NCBI RefSeq assembly: GCF_002240565.1
Contig: NZ_MZMO01000001.1
Location: forward strand, 1,426,001 to 1,490,000
Reading direction: 5' to 3'
Origin: Clavibacter michiganensis subsp. insidiosus
Lineage (GTDB): Bacteria > Actinomycetota > Actinomycetes > Actinomycetales > Microbacteriaceae
Length of the DNA stretch: 64,000 bases
The notes below the pieces were generated by a model that saw nothing but the letters and a program-made list of their open reading frames with translations, was not told the DNA's origin and ran no database searches. Position numbers and translations under genes: made by a program. Shown here piece after piece: positions 6,095 to 51,827 of this stretch. The first letter of the stretch is position 1, and each line of letters begins with the position of its first letter.

Positions 6095-7017
6095 GCGAAG
6101 TGGCTGGACCCGCGAGGCACATCCTGGTCGTGTCCCACACGGGACGGCGCGACTCCATCGACGCGGCGCTCAGCGTGTGCGCGCAGCTGGCCGAGGCGGA
6201 CGTGCACCTGGTGCTCACGGCCGACGAGAAGGCCGACATCCTGCCCTTCGCGCCCGAGATGCAGGGCGTGGCCGTGCTGGGGGAGGACGTGCAGACGGCG
6301 GACCTCGAGATCGTCATCGTCCTCGGCGGCGACGGCACGATCCTGCGCTCGGCCGAGATCGTTCGCGGCACGTCGGTGCCGCTGCTCGGCGTGAACCTCG
6401 GGCACGTGGGCTTCCTGGCCGAGAGCGAGCGGGAGGACCTCACGGCCACGGTGCGCCGCGTGCTCGACCGCGACTACACCGTCGAGGAGCGCATGACGCT
6501 CGACGTCACGCTCAAGGTCGACGCCGACATCGTCTACCGCACCTGGGCGCTCAACGAGGCGACCGTCGAGAAGGCGAGCCGCGAGCGCATGCTCGAGGTG
6601 GTGGTCGAGATCGACGGGCGGCCGCTCGCGTCCTACGGCTGCGACGGCATGGTCGTCTCGACGCCCACGGGATCCACCGCGTACGCGTTCTCGGCCGGCG
6701 GCCCCATCGTGTGGCCGAGCCTCGAGGCCATGCTCGTGGTGCCGCTCAGCCCGCACACGCTCTTCGCCCGCTCGCTCGTCGTGGGCCCGGAGTCCACGGT
6801 CGCCGTCGAGGTGCTCCGCCGCACGTCCGGATCCGGCGTGCTCTGGTGCGACGGACGCCGCACGCGCGACATGCCGCCCGGCGCGCGCGTCGAGACCCGC
6901 CGGTCGGCCATCCCCGTGCGCCTCGCGCGCCTCAAGCAGTCGCCGTTCACCGACCGCCTCGTGAACAAGTTCGAGCTGCCGGTCACCGGCTGGAGGGGGC
7001 CGGTCGATCGTGATTGA
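6091..7017 (+). CDS. nadK: NAD kinase
   Basis: Phosphorylates NAD to NADP. About 308 residues with the family motifs GGDGT (about 79-83), NLGHVGFLAE, and the second-domain signature PTGSTAYAFSAGGP (about 191-204). The start is uncertain: GTG 6091 forms a GTGA overlap with the tlyA stop, but the AGGAG at 6085-6089 is better spaced for GTG 6100, and an upstream ATG exists at 6058. The protein core begins at ARHILVVSHTGRRDS, which fits 6091 or 6100. Overlaps recN by 8 bases. Confidence 0.95.
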   Translation: MSEVAGPARHILVVSHTGRRDSIDAALSVCAQLAEADVHLVLTADEKADILPFAPEMQGVAVLGEDVQTADLEIVIVLGGDGTILRSAEIVRGTSVPLLGVNLGHVGFLAESEREDLTATVRRVLDRDYTVEERMTLDVTLKVDADIVYRTWALNEATVEKASRERMLEVVVEIDGRPLASYGCDGMVVSTPTGSTAYAFSAGGPIVWPSLEAMLVVPLSPHTLFARSLVVGPESTVAVEVLRRTSGSGVLWCDGRRTRDMPPGARVETRRSAIPVRLARLKQSPFTDRLVNKFELPVTGWRGPVDRD

Positions 7018-45700: not shown

Positions 45701-46838
45701 CTACGCGCGTGCCACCCCGACACGCGAGAGGAGGGCGGCCGTCGCGGCCTTCACGCCCGTCTCGATCGTGCCCCCATGGTGGGCGCGAACTGCGGCGTGT
45801 GGTTGCCGGGCGGCGGGGTCGCGCCGCCGAACGGCGACGCCTCGACGCCGCCGAACGCCCAGGAGACCGTCGGCACGCCGATCGCCTCGCCCAGGATCCC
45901 GAAGTCCTCGCTGCCCATGATGGGCGGCGACTCCTTGACCATGTCCTCGCCGAGCTGCGTGGTGAGCGCCGCCACCACGCCGCGCGTCGCCTCCGGATCG
46001 TTCCGGTTCAGCGGGAACGACACGATCTCCTCGATCTCGGGCTCCGAGGCCCCGCTCGCGGCGGCCTCGGCCCGGATGATCCGCCGCACGGACGCCAGCA
46101 CGCGCTCGCGCACGGCCGGGTCGAACGTGCGGATGCTGAGGCCCAGCGTCGCGTGCTCGGGGATGATGCTCTCCTTCGTGCCCGCCTGGAACGTGCCGAC
46201 GGTCACGACGGCGGCCTGCGGACCGATCTCGCGCGCGACCACCGTCTGCAGGCGCAGCACGATGGCGCTGGCGGCGACGATCGGGTCGATGGAGTTCTGC
46301 GGCGGCGACCCGTGGGCGCCGCGGCCCTTCACGGTCACGCGCCACGAGTCGCTCATGCTCATGAACGCGCCCTCGCGCGTCGCGACCACGCCGACGGGGA
46401 GCGGGACGACGTGCTGGCCGAGGATCACCTCGGGGCGCGGCGCGCGATCCCCGAGGCCGTCGGCGAGCATCGCGCGGGAGCCCTCGCCGGTCTCCTCGCC
46501 GGGCTGGAACACGAAGACGATCGTGCCGGCCCACGCGTCGCGGTTCGCGGCGAGCGCCTGCGCGGTCGTGAGCGCGGCGGCGACGTGGAAGTCGTGGCCG
46601 CAGCCGTGCGTGGTCGGCACCTCCGTGCCCGACGGGTCGATGCCCGTGTCGCGGCTGGCGTGCGCGAGGCCCGTCTCCTCGAGGATGGGGAGGCCGTCGG
46701 TGTCGGCGCGGAACGCGACCACCGGGCCGTCGTCGTTGCGGAGGATCCCGACGACGCCGGTGCCGCCGCAGCGGCTCGTCTCGGCGCCGATCGCCTCCAG
46801 GTACGCCTCGATCGAGCGGGCGTCGGCCGAGCGGGCGT
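45701..46838 (-). pseudogene. M20D-family amidohydrolase/peptidase, damaged at both ends
   Basis: The body matches M20D aminoacylases/amidohydrolases: GGTGVVGIL, FRADTDGLPI, HGCGHDFHVAA (metal ligands), QPGEETGEGS, RGAHGSPPQNSIDP and MGSEDFG. Two defects are visible. At the 5' side family similarity starts only at IEAYLEAIGAE, immediately after the stop of the sensor kinase gene; the usual first 40 or so residues are absent and the frame has no start except an ATG at 46902 within the kinase gene. At the 3' side the frame ends early after QFAPTMG; a one-base gain in the G run (C run 45771-45775 on the plus strand) restores GGTIETGVKAATAALL down to 45701, the normal family C-terminus. Either a true pseudogene or partly a sequencing error. 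Confidence 0.75.
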
Positions 46839-48169
46839 CACTCCGCGGGCTGCTCCGCCGGCAGGCGCAGCGCGACGCGGGCGCCGCCGCCCGGTGCCGC
46901 ATCCACGGTCGCGGATCCGCCGTGCGCCTCCGCGACCTCGCGCACGATGGCGAGGCCGAGCCCGGATCCGCCCGAGTCGCGGTCGCGCCCCTCGTCGAGG
47001 CGCACGAAGCGGTCGAGGACGCGCTCGCGTTCGGCCGCGGGGATCCCGCGCCCGTCGTCGTCGACCGTGAGCACGACGCCGTCGGAGCCCGCCGTCGTGG
47101 ACACGGTCACGGTCGTCGCCGCGTGCCGGGCGGCGTTCTCCACGAGGTCGCGGACGGCGAGCGCGAGGAGCCGGGCGTCGCCGGAGACGCGGCAGGCGGT
47201 GGTCCCCGATCCGTCGACCCGAACATCTGCCCGCCCGCGCAGCCGCGCGACCTCCTCGAGCGCGACGTCGTCGAGGTCCACGGGGCGGCGGTCGAGCGCC
47301 GCGCCGTGGTCGAGGCGGCTGAGCACGAGGAGCGCGTCGACGAGGTCCTGCTGCCGCCCGCCCTCGGCGAGCACGACGTCGGCGAGCTCGGCGAGGCTCG
47401 TCCGGTCGGGGTGGATGCGGGCGAGCTCGGCGGGCTGCCGCACGGTCGCGAGCGGGGAGCGGAGCTCGTGCGACGCGTCGGAGACGAAGCGCCGCTGTGC
47501 CGTGCGGGCCGCCTCGAGGTGGGCGAGCATGCCGTTGAGGGTGCGCGCGAGCCGGTCGACCTCGTCACCCGTCCCGGGCTCGTCGATGCGCGCGTCGCCC
47601 GCCGCGGAGCCGATGGCCTGGGCGTCGCGGCGGATCCGCTCCACCGGTCGCAGCGCACGACCCACGACGATCCACGCCAGCAGCGCCACGAGCGCGACGA
47701 CGACGGGCACGGCCACGAGGAGCAACCGCACGACCGCCGCGACCGCCTCGTCGGCCTCCTCGAGGGACGCCGCGACGACGACGGTCACGCCGCCCGCGTC
47801 CTCGACCTCGCCCGCGACCACGAGCCGCCGCTCCCCGTCGACGACGACGTCGTCGGCCCGGTCGTCGACGTACAGGGGCGGGCCGTCGGCGTCATCGCCG
47901 TGCGCGATCACGCGGCCGTCGCCGTCGAGCACCTGCACGAGGTCGTCGTCGCCGAGGCCCGTCACCGCCTGCGGACCGCCCGCGGCGACCGCATCGGCGA
48001 CGGTCTCGAGCGTGCGCCCGGCGGCCTCGCGCACGCCGTCCTCGAGCGAGGCCCGCAGCACCACCGCGAACGCGACCGCCCCGAGCGCCCCGAGCACGAG
48101 CGCGATGAGGGCGACCGCGGTCGTCGCCCGCACGCGGAGCGAGCGGCGTCGCCGGCCCGGCTCACGCAT
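46838..48169 (-). CDS. Two-component sensor histidine kinase
   Basis: A 443-residue HK of the OmpR-partner type. TM1 (about 14-36), an extracytoplasmic sensor (about 37-145), TM2 (about 147-170), HAMP (about 170-225), phospho-acceptor His in SDASHELRSP (about 231), N box LVENAARHA, G1 DDDGRGIP and G2 GGSGLGLAIV. The sensed signal is unknown. Overlaps the response-regulator DNA-binding part upstream by 8 bases, as normal RR-HK pairs do, but its receiver partner is missing (see the ThrE chimera). Confidence 0.93.
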   Translation of the reverse strand: MREPGRRRRSLRVRATTAVALIALVLGALGAVAFAVVLRASLEDGVREAAGRTLETVADAVAAGGPQAVTGLGDDDLVQVLDGDGRVIAHGDDADGPPLYVDDRADDVVVDGERRLVVAGEVEDAGGVTVVVAASLEEADEAVAAVVRLLLVAVPVVVALVALLAWIVVGRALRPVERIRRDAQAIGSAAGDARIDEPGTGDEVDRLARTLNGMLAHLEAARTAQRRFVSDASHELRSPLATVRQPAELARIHPDRTSLAELADVVLAEGGRQQDLVDALLVLSRLDHGAALDRRPVDLDDVALEEVARLRGRADVRVDGSGTTACRVSGDARLLALAVRDLVENAARHAATTVTVSTTAGSDGVVLTVDDDGRGIPAAERERVLDRFVRLDEGRDRDSGGSGLGLAIVREVAEAHGGSATVDAAPGGGARVALRLPAEQPAE

Positions 48170-49766
48170 CGGATCCGCCCAGTCGGTACCCCGCGCCGCG
48201 CACCGTCTCGATGGTCGCGGTGCCGTACGGCCGGTCGAGCTTCCGGCGCAGGTGCGCCACGTACACCTCGACGATGGACGGGTCGCCCTCGAAGTCGTCG
48301 TCCCGGACGTCCTGGACCACCTCGCGCTTGGACACGACGCGGCCGGCGTTCCGCGCGAGGAACTCCAGCACCGCGAACTCGCGGCTCGTCAGGTCGATCT
48401 CCTCGCCGGCACGGGACGCGCGGCGGGGGCCCGGGTCGACGACGAGGTCGCCGATGCGGTGCGCCACCGGCCGGACGCGCGCCGCGACCACCGTGCCGAG
48501 CGCGCCGAGCAGCGTCGCGACCAGGAACGTCGCCGCGAGCAGCGGGACGCCGGCCGCCTTGAGGATCCAGAGCGACACCGTGCCGACGAGCGCCATGCCG
48601 ATCGCGACGGGCATCACGCGCGCGTTGGCGCCCTGCGTGATCCCGGTGGCGCCGGCCGCGAAGAACGTCGTGATCAGCAGCATCCAGAGAGGCAGCGCCC
48701 GCAGGGTGATGTCGGTGGGATCCACCTCGATGTCGACGACGGCGGTGAGCGCGAGGCCGCCCGGGATGCCGACGGCGATGCCCGCGACGATGAGCACGAT
48801 GATCATGGCCCGCGACAGCGCCATGGCCCGGAACCCGGAGATGGCGTCCTGCGCCCACGTGACGATGGTGACGTGGGGGAGGATCAGCACCACCACGGCC
48901 GCGACCATCGCCGCGGCGCTCCCCGCGGGCATGACGCCCGACCAGATCGCGAGCGTGCCGAGCGCGGCGACGGCGGCCGACTGCACGGCGACCACGAAGA
49001 ACGGCGGGATGCCGCGGCGCGAGAGCTGCCGGCCGAGCACCATGGCGCCGATCATCAGCAGGAACGCCCCGACGGCTCCCGGCAGGGATCCGCCCGCCTG
49101 CAGCGAGACGGAGACGCCGAACAGGCCCATGGCGGCGTCGGTGATCCACGACGGCCAGCGCGGCGGCGACCTGAGCACCTCGACGAGGCCCTCGACGGCG
49201 CTCGTCATGTCGCGGTCGTCGTGGAGGAGCTCGTCGACGATCTGGTAGACGAGCGACAGCCGGTGCAGGTCGCTGCCCTCGGCGGTGACGACGCGCAGCT
49301 TCACGAGCGGCGGACCCTCGAGCGGCGCGTACTGGATGGTGATGGCCGTGCCCGTGATGTCGAGCTCCAGCGGCGCGAGGTTCCACTTCGTGCTCACGGC
49401 GACGATCGCGATCTCCACCGCGCGCACGTCCGCGCCGGACGCGAGCATCACCTCGCCGAGGTCGAGGCAGAAGTCGACGATCTGGCGCGGGGAGTACAGG
49501 TCGCCGAGGCGGCCGTGCGCGGGCTCGGTCCCCTCGTAGATGGTGCCGCGGAGGCGGGCGCGGACGTCGCGCATCTCCTGCGGGTTGACGCGGCGGCGGC
49601 GCTGGCGCGGCGGACGCGCGGCTCCGGGATCCCGGCGGGGGCGCCGCGGGTCGCCGGGCGGCGGGGTGGTGCTCAGCGCGATCAGCGCTCCGTTCGGTGG
49701 CCGGCCCGCGTCGAGCGGGGGCGGATGGTGGATCGTCCCCACCCTAGGCTCCCCTCCGGGGGACAC
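48162..49766 (-). CDS. Chimera: ThrE-type exporter fused to OmpR-type DNA-binding domain
   Basis: One uninterrupted frame of up to 534 residues joins two unrelated families. Residues about 65-425 are a threonine/serine exporter: a cytosolic ThrE N-domain (FCLDLGEVMLASGADVRAVE) and then about eight membrane segments, stopping at TLLGALGTVVAARVR, where a normal ThrE has two more segments. From about 427 the sequence is the winged-helix output domain of an OmpR-type response regulator (HRIGDLVVDPGPRR, IDLTSREFAVLEFLARN, VEVYVAHLRRKLD, ETVRGAGYRLG), and the receiver domain is absent. The downstream HK overlap is preserved. The start is uncertain (GTG 49766, GTG 49742 or ATG 49574). With eight segments and N-in topology the winged helix would be cytosolic. 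Probably a deletion/recombination scar; a working membrane-bound regulator is possible. Confidence 0.85.
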   Translation of the reverse strand: MSPGGEPRVGTIHHPPPLDAGRPPNGALIALSTTPPPGDPRRPRRDPGAARPPRQRRRRVNPQEMRDVRARLRGTIYEGTEPAHGRLGDLYSPRQIVDFCLDLGEVMLASGADVRAVEIAIVAVSTKWNLAPLELDITGTAITIQYAPLEGPPLVKLRVVTAEGSDLHRLSLVYQIVDELLHDDRDMTSAVEGLVEVLRSPPRWPSWITDAAMGLFGVSVSLQAGGSLPGAVGAFLLMIGAMVLGRQLSRRGIPPFFVVAVQSAAVAALGTLAIWSGVMPAGSAAAMVAAVVVLILPHVTIVTWAQDAISGFRAMALSRAMIIVLIVAGIAVGIPGGLALTAVVDIEVDPTDITLRALPLWMLLITTFFAAGATGITQGANARVMPVAIGMALVGTVSLWILKAAGVPLLAATFLVATLLGALGTVVAARVRPVAHRIGDLVVDPGPRRASRAGEEIDLTSREFAVLEFLARNAGRVVSKREVVQDVRDDDFEGDPSIVEVYVAHLRRKLDRPYGTATIETVRGAGYRLGGSDA

Positions 49767-49823: not shown

Positions 49824-50717
49824 TCAGCCCTTGGGGCAGGAGCTGAGCGACACGCTGATGGGGCCGCCGACCTTCGGGGCCGGGCAGATGAACTTCGCAT
49901 AGGCGCTGTTGCCGTCGAGGTAGCGCTTGAGGAACGCCGTGACCGCGTTGCGGATCGCGGCGACCGGCGCGTGCTCGCCGGCGGAGTGATCGAGGCCCTT
50001 CAGCTCCAGGTACTGCTTCGGGGTGCCGGCGGGGATGGAGTCGTACGCGGGCTTGCCGAAGTCCTTCGGACGGGCGACTTCGTCCTTCTGGCCGGTGATG
50101 ACCAGCGTGGGGGTCGTGAGCTTCGGGTACGTCGCGTACAGCGCGTGCGGGTCGCTCGCGGGCGGGACGTCGAAGGGCATGAGCCCGATCGCGGCCTTGA
50201 TGGACGGGCGCGACTGCGCCGCCTGCATCGTGCCGCCGCCGCCGAACGAGTAGCCGATGAGGCCGACGTCCTTCGCGGAGACCTCGGACCTCACGGCGCT
50301 CTGGCCAGTGAGGTAGTCCGTCGCGGCGAGGATCTCGGTGGCGCGCTGGGCGGGTAGGTCGCCCGTGTCGAGGGTGTCGATGACGAACGCGACGAAGCCC
50401 TGCGAGGCGACGAGCTGGCCGAGCTCCTTCTCGTCGGCGTTGGTGTTCGTGAAGCCGGGCGTGATGACGACGGCACCGAGGACGGGCTTGCCGGTGTCCT
50501 GCGGCGTGTAGATGACGCCGCCGCCGAACGCCTTCACGGCCGTCTTCGGGACGACCGTGGTGCGCACCGCGAAGGGCGCGTGGTGGTGCACGACGACCGG
50601 CTGGGGGGCCGGGGCATGGGCCTGGGCTGCGGCGGGGGCCGCGAGGGTCGCGACCAGGGCGAGCGCGGCGACCGCCGCGGGGCGGCGGAGCGAGGAGGGC
50701 ATGACGGACATGGGCAT
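49824..50717 (-). CDS. Secreted cutinase/polyester-hydrolase-like enzyme, copy 1
   Basis: About 297 residues, exported. Signal peptide LRRPAAVAALALVATLAAP ends at AQA. Alpha/beta hydrolase fold with GGVIYTPQD, VVITPGF (oxyanion region), nucleophile elbow GYSFGGGGTM, Asp in GQKDEVARP and His in GLDHSAGE. A C-terminal Cys pair (FICPAP and SSCPKG) probably forms a disulfide. The layout matches actinobacterial cutinases/PET-hydrolase relatives and chlorophyllase-like lipases; activity on plant cutin is plausible for a plant-associated host but unproven. Start ATG 50717 or 50711, both after GAGAG. Paralogue of the next gene. Confidence 0.85.
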   Translation of the reverse strand: MPMSVMPSSLRRPAAVAALALVATLAAPAAAQAHAPAPQPVVVHHHAPFAVRTTVVPKTAVKAFGGGVIYTPQDTGKPVLGAVVITPGFTNTNADEKELGQLVASQGFVAFVIDTLDTGDLPAQRATEILAATDYLTGQSAVRSEVSAKDVGLIGYSFGGGGTMQAAQSRPSIKAAIGLMPFDVPPASDPHALYATYPKLTTPTLVITGQKDEVARPKDFGKPAYDSIPAGTPKQYLELKGLDHSAGEHAPVAAIRNAVTAFLKRYLDGNSAYAKFICPAPKVGGPISVSLSSCPKG

Positions 50718-50864
50718 CTCTCTGTTCGACGAGAGCCCGCGGCGATCGCCGCGGACAGGGTGTGGCAGAACGCTAGGGGCACGCGACCCCGACCGCCGTC
50801 CCGTCATCCCCAGCCGCGCCGACCTGGGGATGATCTGCCCGCGGCGCGCGCTCGGTCGTCTGCG

Positions 50865-50915: not shown

Positions 50916-51827
50916 TCAGCTCGTGGGGCAGGAGCTGGTCGAGGCGCTGATGGGGCCGCCGACCTTCGGCGCCGGGCAGATCTGCTTCGCGGCGGCGGTG
51001 TCGCCGTCGAGGTACCGCTCGAGGAACGCGGTGATGGCGGCCCGGATCGTGGCGACCGGCTTCCCCATCCCGGCCGCGTGGCCGAGCCCCGTGAGCTGGA
51101 GGTACTGCTTCGGGGTGCCGGCCGGGATCGAGTCGTAGGCGGGCTTGCCGAACTTCGCCGGGATCGCGGTCGCGTCCTCCTGTCCGATGATGATGAGCGT
51201 CGGCACCGTCAGCTCCGGGTACGCGGGGTGGACCGCCTTCGGGTCGCCGGCGGGCGGGTAGTCGTACGGCATGAGGGTCAGGGCGGCCTTGATCGACGGG
51301 CGACGCTGCGCGGCCTGGAGCGTCCCGCCGCCGCCCATGGAGTAGCCGAGGAGGGCGACGCGGTCGGGGGAGACCTCGCCCGTCACGGCGCTCCTGCCGG
51401 TGAGGTAGTCGGCGGCGGCGAGCATCTCGGTGGCGCGCTGGTCGGGGAGGTCGGCGCGGTCGCGCGTGTCGATGGTGAAGACGACGAAGCCCTCCGCGGC
51501 GAGCTCGGTGCCGTAGGCGGCCATGTCCGACTTCCTGCCGTGGAACCCGGGGGTGACGACGACCGATCCGAGGACCTTCCGCCCGGTGTCGCGCGGGGCG
51601 TAGATCGTGCCGCCGCCGAAGCCCGGATCCGCCGTGGCGGGGACGACGATCTGGTCGACGTCGGACGGCTGGTGGTGGGAAGAGGCGGCGGGGCGCGTCA
51701 CCGGGTGGTGGACGGGCTCCGCCGCCTGGGCGGCCGTGGGCACGGCGAGGGTGGCGACGAGGGTCAGGGCGGCGATCGCCGCGGCGCGGGAGCGGAAGGA
51801 GGGGAAGGAGGGGGGTGTTGCGGGCAT
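50916..51827 (-). CDS. Secreted cutinase/polyester-hydrolase-like enzyme, copy 2
   Basis: A 303-residue exported paralogue of the gene at 49824-50717, with clear identity over the mature part (FGKPAYDSIPAGTPKQYL is shared exactly). Signal peptide to about residue 36 (AQA). Nucleophile Ser in GYSMGGGGTL, Asp in GQEDATAIP, His in GLGHAAGM, C-terminal Cys pair. Tandem copies with separate terminators suggest each has its own promoter. Differences around the catalytic His (HAAGM against HSAGE) may mean different substrates. Confidence 0.85.
   Translation of the reverse strand: MPATPPSFPSFRSRAAAIAALTLVATLAVPTAAQAAEPVHHPVTRPAASSHHQPSDVDQIVVPATADPGFGGGTIYAPRDTGRKVLGSVVVTPGFHGRKSDMAAYGTELAAEGFVVFTIDTRDRADLPDQRATEMLAAADYLTGRSAVTGEVSPDRVALLGYSMGGGGTLQAAQRRPSIKAALTLMPYDYPPAGDPKAVHPAYPELTVPTLIIIGQEDATAIPAKFGKPAYDSIPAGTPKQYLQLTGLGHAAGMGKPVATIRAAITAFLERYLDGDTAAAKQICPAPKVGGPISASTSSCPTS

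What the first reader, a model, noticed from the sequence alone, without database searches (positions are those of the whole stretch)
48162..49766. ThrE exporter fused in frame to a response-regulator DNA-binding domain
About eight ThrE membrane segments run straight into a complete OmpR-type winged helix, with the last part of ThrE and the whole receiver domain missing. The downstream kinase keeps its normal overlap with the regulator part. This is either a deletion scar or a new membrane-bound transcription regulator similar in plan to CadC/ToxR but with a transporter as sensor.
Basis: seen in the sequence. Interest (0 to 1): 0.8.

Follow-up and report, generated by a model that had tools for sequence, protein, structure and literature searches.

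The report
Deletion scar fusing two neighbouring genes
In this plant-associated bacterium a deletion of roughly 750 bases has joined the front of an amino-acid exporter gene to the back of the neighbouring regulator gene; the result is most likely a broken remnant, not a new kind of sensor.

Summary
In detail: the open frame 48162-49766 (-) carries ThrE (residues 98-340; about eight membrane helices) joined at residue 432 to a complete OmpR-type winged helix, with no receiver. Its origin is a deletion. In 17 of 17 other Clavibacter genomes thrE runs past this point. In 5 of the 17 a full-length response regulator follows, in a sixth (G011) it is split between two frames. Those six hold 739-796 bp (one: 1373) between the flanks that meet here; exact homology at the junction is 0-4 bp. 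No near-identical copy of the lost stretch was found elsewhere in the genome, and no other protein found has both domains. Decay is favoured: a near-invariant Trp is lost, winged helix plus kinase carry 8 private amino-acid changes against 1 silent, and the next gene lost its start through a second deletion of about 0.9 kb. Against it, pairwise dN/dS of kinase and winged helix is mostly unremarkable. Verdict: a chimeric pseudogene, probably in Clavibacter insidiosus. A functional regulator is not excluded.

The parts
48162..49766 (-). ThrE / OmpR-winged-helix chimeric open frame (534 codons from GTG; likely start is the ATG at 49574)
48471..49766 (-). ThrE-derived part, codons 1-432, ending at the end of membrane helix 8; lacks the last about 110 residues of ThrE
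48470..48471 (-). deletion junction; six relatives hold 739, 754, 759, 774, 796 and 1373 bases here; 0-4 bp exact homology
48162..48470 (-). response-regulator C-terminal winged helix (codons 433-534), receiver lost; private changes N486D and W488R
46838..48169 (-). sensor histidine kinase of the same two-component pair (HAMP, HisKA, HATPase_c), now without its regulator's receiver; six private amino-acid changes, one private silent change
46804..46822 (-). second junction: about 0.9 kb present in five relatives between kinase and amidohydrolase is absent
45704..46827 (-). remnant of an amidohydrolase gene: first 35 residues (counted on the L016 protein) missing and a frame change near the C-terminus

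Best explanation
A single deletion of about 750 bp removed the end of thrE, the short spacer, and the receiver half of the response-regulator gene behind it. By chance (about one in three) the ends met in frame, giving a chimeric open reading frame. The product is most likely non-functional: a ThrE without its last about 110 residues, and a winged helix without phosphorylation control placed almost directly at the membrane. It is one scar in a two-component locus that is decaying in this lineage: a second deletion next door removed the start of an amidohydrolase gene, and a close relative (G011) has the same regulator split between two frames. Shown: deletion relative to relatives, no near copy of the lost segment found elsewhere, neighbouring damage. 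Inferred: direction (loss, not gain), loss of function, short-homology mechanism.
For: With intact ThrE P0003 (534 aa) as query, matches in 17 of 17 other Clavibacter genomes reach residue 520 or beyond without a stop; in G000 alone the match ends at residue 428. Full-length regulator in 5 of 18 genomes, two overlapping pieces in different frames in G011, no match at E 1e-60 in the other 12, G000 included; kinase in 7 of 18, G000 included. In L014 thrE ends at 6487 and the regulator starts at 6545, same strand. 739-796 bp (1373 in G010) lie between the two flanks in 6 of 6 relatives with regulator sequence there. The best of 16 matches of the lost segment (taken from L014) in G000 is 109 bp at 83%, the rest are 67-86% pieces, the strongest beside regulator paralogues (40 of 754 candidates scored). 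ThrE plus winged helix: 1 of 60 hits, 1 of 46, the window's own each time. The Trp replaced in the window is kept in 26 of 27 other winged helices examined and in 6 of 6 Clavibacter relatives. Private changes in winged helix plus kinase: 8 amino-acid, 1 silent in G000, against 37 and 69 pooled in five relatives with a full regulator (Fisher p 0.0023), and against 1 and 7 in the window's own ThrE part (p 0.0034). Neighbour amidohydrolase damaged. PMC5358740 (passages) reports the most pseudogenes in the subspecies it labels Cms and Cmi (table row: 18, 114, 109, 50, 79).
Against: The frame is open with no stop, and the identical protein is recorded on another contig. Pairwise dN/dS of the winged helix is low against five relatives (0.065-0.160) and higher only against G011 (0.355); that of the kinase (0.177-0.267) lies in the range of the other pairs (0.157-0.267), so it shows no relaxation. 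The private-change counts are small and the test was chosen after seeing the data. G011, whose regulator is also broken, shows no excess (4 and 6, p 0.74). One own paralogue has Arg at the Trp position (L006). The 8 to 1 excess may predate the deletion.
Confidence: 0.88

Rival explanations
1. Functional membrane-anchored transcription regulator: the truncated transporter senses a solute or membrane state and positions a cytosolic winged helix on DNA, in plan like CadC/ToxR.
For: In frame and open; eight helices put the C-terminus in the cytosol if the N-terminus is cytosolic (helix count; N-in orientation recalled); winged helix profile complete; low pairwise dN/dS of the winged helix against five of six relatives.
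Against: No other protein found has both domains and 17 of 17 other Clavibacter genomes have thrE intact there; about five residues between helix 8 (to 431) and the start of the winged-helix match (437) (inference); near-invariant Trp lost; excess private changes; neighbour gene broken.
Confidence: 0.04
2. Truncated ThrE keeps some export or other activity and the winged helix is a passive tail; the open frame persists because the ThrE part is still selected.
For: The window's ThrE part shows ordinary constraint: 1 private amino-acid change and 7 silent among seven genomes; dN/dS 0.095-0.185 against six relatives.
Against: The constraint may all predate the deletion; the C-terminal part that was lost is present in 17 of 17 other Clavibacter genomes.
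Confidence: 0.07
3. Assembly artefact joining two genes.
For: No reads could be examined.
Against: The same protein is recorded on a contig of a different length; the genome is in 3 contigs, 100% complete; two separate deletions at the locus fit decay.
Confidence: 0.01

Closest known systems
ThrE threonine/serine exporter family (PF06738, NF047720)
   Same: N-terminal domain and eight membrane helices; residues 1-432 are 98% identical to ThrE of Clavibacter sp. VKM Ac-2872 and Ac-2873
   Different: last about 110 residues removed
OmpR/PhoB-type response regulators (PF00072 + PF00486)
   Same: complete C-terminal winged helix, 92-97% identical to the regulator beside thrE in six relatives
   Different: whole receiver domain removed; near-invariant Trp replaced by Arg
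CadC/ToxR one-component membrane regulators (recalled, no call)
   Same: OmpR-type winged helix and membrane part in one chain
   Different: order reversed (winged helix C-terminal), eight helices instead of one, almost no linker, not found in other species
Chimeric pseudogenes made by deletion between neighbouring genes in host-restricted bacteria (recalled as a class)
   Same: separate genes in relatives, neighbouring gene damage, seen in one lineage
   Different: happens to be in frame

Membership tests
Deletion-made chimeric gene or pseudogene | Both parents whole, adjacent and in the same order in relatives | tested here: met
   thrE past the fusion point in 17 of 17 other genomes, full-length regulator beside it in 5 of 17
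Deletion-made chimeric gene or pseudogene | Missing middle absent from the rest of the genome | tested here: met
   16 short or 67-86% matches only, the strongest beside regulator paralogues (40 of 754 candidates scored)
Deletion-made chimeric gene or pseudogene | Relaxed constraint after the event | tested here: inconclusive
   8 private amino-acid against 1 silent change in winged helix plus kinase, but pairwise dN/dS of the kinase not raised; small counts, timing unknown
ToxR/CadC-type membrane regulator | N-terminal winged helix, one membrane helix, extracytoplasmic sensor (definition recalled) | tested here: not met
   winged helix C-terminal after eight helices
OmpR-type response regulator | Receiver domain with phospho-acceptor | tested here: not met
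   no PF00072 match in the fusion; present in the relative's regulator
ThrE exporter | Complete membrane domain | tested here: not met
   match to intact ThrE P0003 ends at its residue 428 of 534, in G000 only of 18 genomes
ThrE exporter | Export of threonine or serine | not testable with these tools
   needs a bench test (referred)

The most novel reading that the evidence does not exclude
The in-frame fusion is expressed and works as a membrane-bound, phosphorylation-independent regulator whose sensor is a truncated amino-acid transporter: a regulator caught at birth by deletion.
Probability: 0.04. Interest if true: 0.75.

Novelty: new member of a known kind. Interest (0 to 1): 0.2.

Why it matters
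It explains a striking domain combination as a deletion scar, which keeps it from being read as a new membrane-regulator architecture. It also documents a two-component system and its neighbour decaying side by side in one Clavibacter lineage. If the fusion did work, it would show how a transporter can become a transcriptional sensor in one step.

Tried and rejected
Misassembly was considered and set aside. A family of ThrE plus winged-helix proteins was looked for twice: a full-length search (60 hits; only the 7995 candidates sharing most words were scored) and a search on residues 428-534, which admits proteins of 0.55-1.75 times 534 aa (46 hits of 507 candidates). By precomputed Pfam domains only the window's own protein has both. 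A copy of the lost segment elsewhere in the genome was looked for and not found. An insertion-sequence origin was not tested: none is visible in the 42 bases read at the junction, but no search for elements was made.

The AlphaFold model is uninformative for the winged helix (block pLDDT 27-64 there), probably because few alignment rows cover it; it was used only for the helix count. The PDB sequence search matched only the winged-helix end in the 60 rows shown of 70. The 18-genome ThrE count was wrong for G009 (shifted by one codon; cause not traced, a stop dropped by the aligner is my guess), which also spoils that table for the other rows, so it was discarded and redone on residues 65-428, where G000 has 1 private amino-acid and 1 silent change. 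The Trp comparison used 9 of the 10 own paralogous matches (the tenth had no locus). Paper searches: Clavibacter/insidiosus/genome/pseudogene, 6 papers; ThrE/threonine exporter/winged helix/fusion, 1,189 papers holding at least 3 of 4 terms, 12 listed, none of those 12 on this topic by title; at least 2 of Clavibacter, threonine serine exporter, ThrE as whole words, 0 papers. Of papers only passages of PMC5358740 were read. The organism name rests on plasmid similarity and recalled host ranges. That G011 is C. sepedonicus is recalled from its chromosome length, not tested.

Full report
What is there. The frame 48162-49766 on the minus strand is open for 534 codons. Pfam finds ThrE at 98-340 and a full OmpR-type winged helix at 454-529, and no receiver. 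The model has eight membrane-length helices ending at residue 431, counting the two short ones at 281-309 as one. ThrE sequence ends at residue 432, where relatives continue with about 110 more residues. The kinase behind it has HAMP, HisKA and HATPase_c domains and its start overlaps the fusion's stop by 8 nt.

Where it comes from. An intact ThrE (P0003, 534 aa) was searched in 18 Clavibacter genomes. In 17 of 17 others the match runs to residue 520 or beyond; in the window's genome it ends at residue 428. (In G006 part of the N-terminal stretch also matches separately, upstream of the usual start.) A full-length regulator matches in 5 of 18 genomes; in G011 it appears as two overlapping pieces in different frames; the other 12, the window's genome included, have no match at E 1e-60 or better. 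The kinase is in 7 of 18, the window's included. In the six relatives with regulator sequence at the locus, 739, 754, 759, 774, 796 and 1373 bases separate the two flanks that meet in the window. Exact homology at the two break points is 0-4 bp depending on the relative; in G011 the 12 bases before each are alike in 9 of 12 (both read), and BLAST pieces overlap by 18 bases there. The missing segment, taken from L014, has no near copy in the genome. So a deletion of about 750 bp fused the two genes.

Is it alive? Three results point to decay. First, Trp 488 of the winged helix is Arg; Trp is kept in 26 of 27 comparison winged helices (18 of 18 from other genera, 8 of 9 own paralogues) and in 6 of 6 Clavibacter relatives. 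Second, at sites otherwise invariant among seven genomes, winged helix plus kinase of the window have 8 private amino-acid changes and 1 private silent change; five relatives with a full-length regulator have 37 and 69 pooled (p 0.0023); the window's own ThrE part has 1 and 7 (p 0.0034). Third, the next gene, an amidohydrolase, lacks its first 35 residues and changes frame near its C-terminus in the window. With the L016 protein as query, 8 of 8 loci of other Clavibacter genomes begin at residue 1 in one frame (4 run to the end or one residue short of it, 4 are cut by the end of the locus); a ninth locus, L123, is the query's own genome. DNA comparison with five relatives shows about 0.9 kb missing between kinase and amidohydrolase. 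Two deletions thus flank the kinase.

Against decay: the frame has no stop, and the same protein is recorded on another contig. Pairwise dN/dS of the winged helix is 0.065-0.160 against five relatives and 0.355 only against G011; that of the kinase, 0.177-0.267, is no higher than among the other pairs. The private-change tests are small and post hoc, and G011, with its broken regulator, shows no excess (4 and 6, p 0.74). These would be expected if the damage is recent, but they do not prove it.

Uniqueness. Of 60 relatives of the whole protein and 46 relatives of its winged-helix part among proteins of similar length, only the window's own record has both ThrE and winged helix. Neither search is exhaustive, but there is no sign of a family of such regulators.

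Organism. One of the two smaller contigs matches, over its first 15 kb at 99.4-99.6%, plasmids of Clavibacter from Medicago; the other matches Medicago isolates at 98.6-98.7% over 68% of its first 15 kb. The records are named C. michiganensis; with recall of host ranges this suggests C. insidiosus. PMC5358740 (passages read) reports that the subspecies it labels Cms and Cmi have the most pseudogenes, and takes this as a sign of degenerating genomes; that fits.

Verdict. An in-frame gene fusion made by deletion, most likely a chimeric pseudogene in a decaying two-component locus. The most novel reading, a working transporter-sensor regulator, is not excluded but has about 4% probability.

Noticed in passing
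45704-46827 (-): Amidohydrolase gene lacks its first 35 residues and changes frame near its C-terminus; about 0.9 kb present in five relatives between it and the kinase is missing.
   Followed up: yes
G011:C2:1351931-1352598 (L115, L116): In a close relative the same response regulator is split between two frames while its kinase is 95% identical to the window's.
   Followed up: partly
46838-48470: The regulator-kinase pair next to thrE is patchy: kinase in 7 of 18 Clavibacter genomes; whether this is gain or repeated loss was not worked out.
   Followed up: no
49824-50807 and 50916-51827 (-): Two adjacent, similar hydrolase-like genes in tandem upstream of thrE; in L011 and L012 the first of them also matches two neighbouring places.
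   Followed up: no
G000:C1:3026483-3026782 (L006): An own paralogous winged helix also has Arg at the near-invariant Trp position.
   Followed up: no
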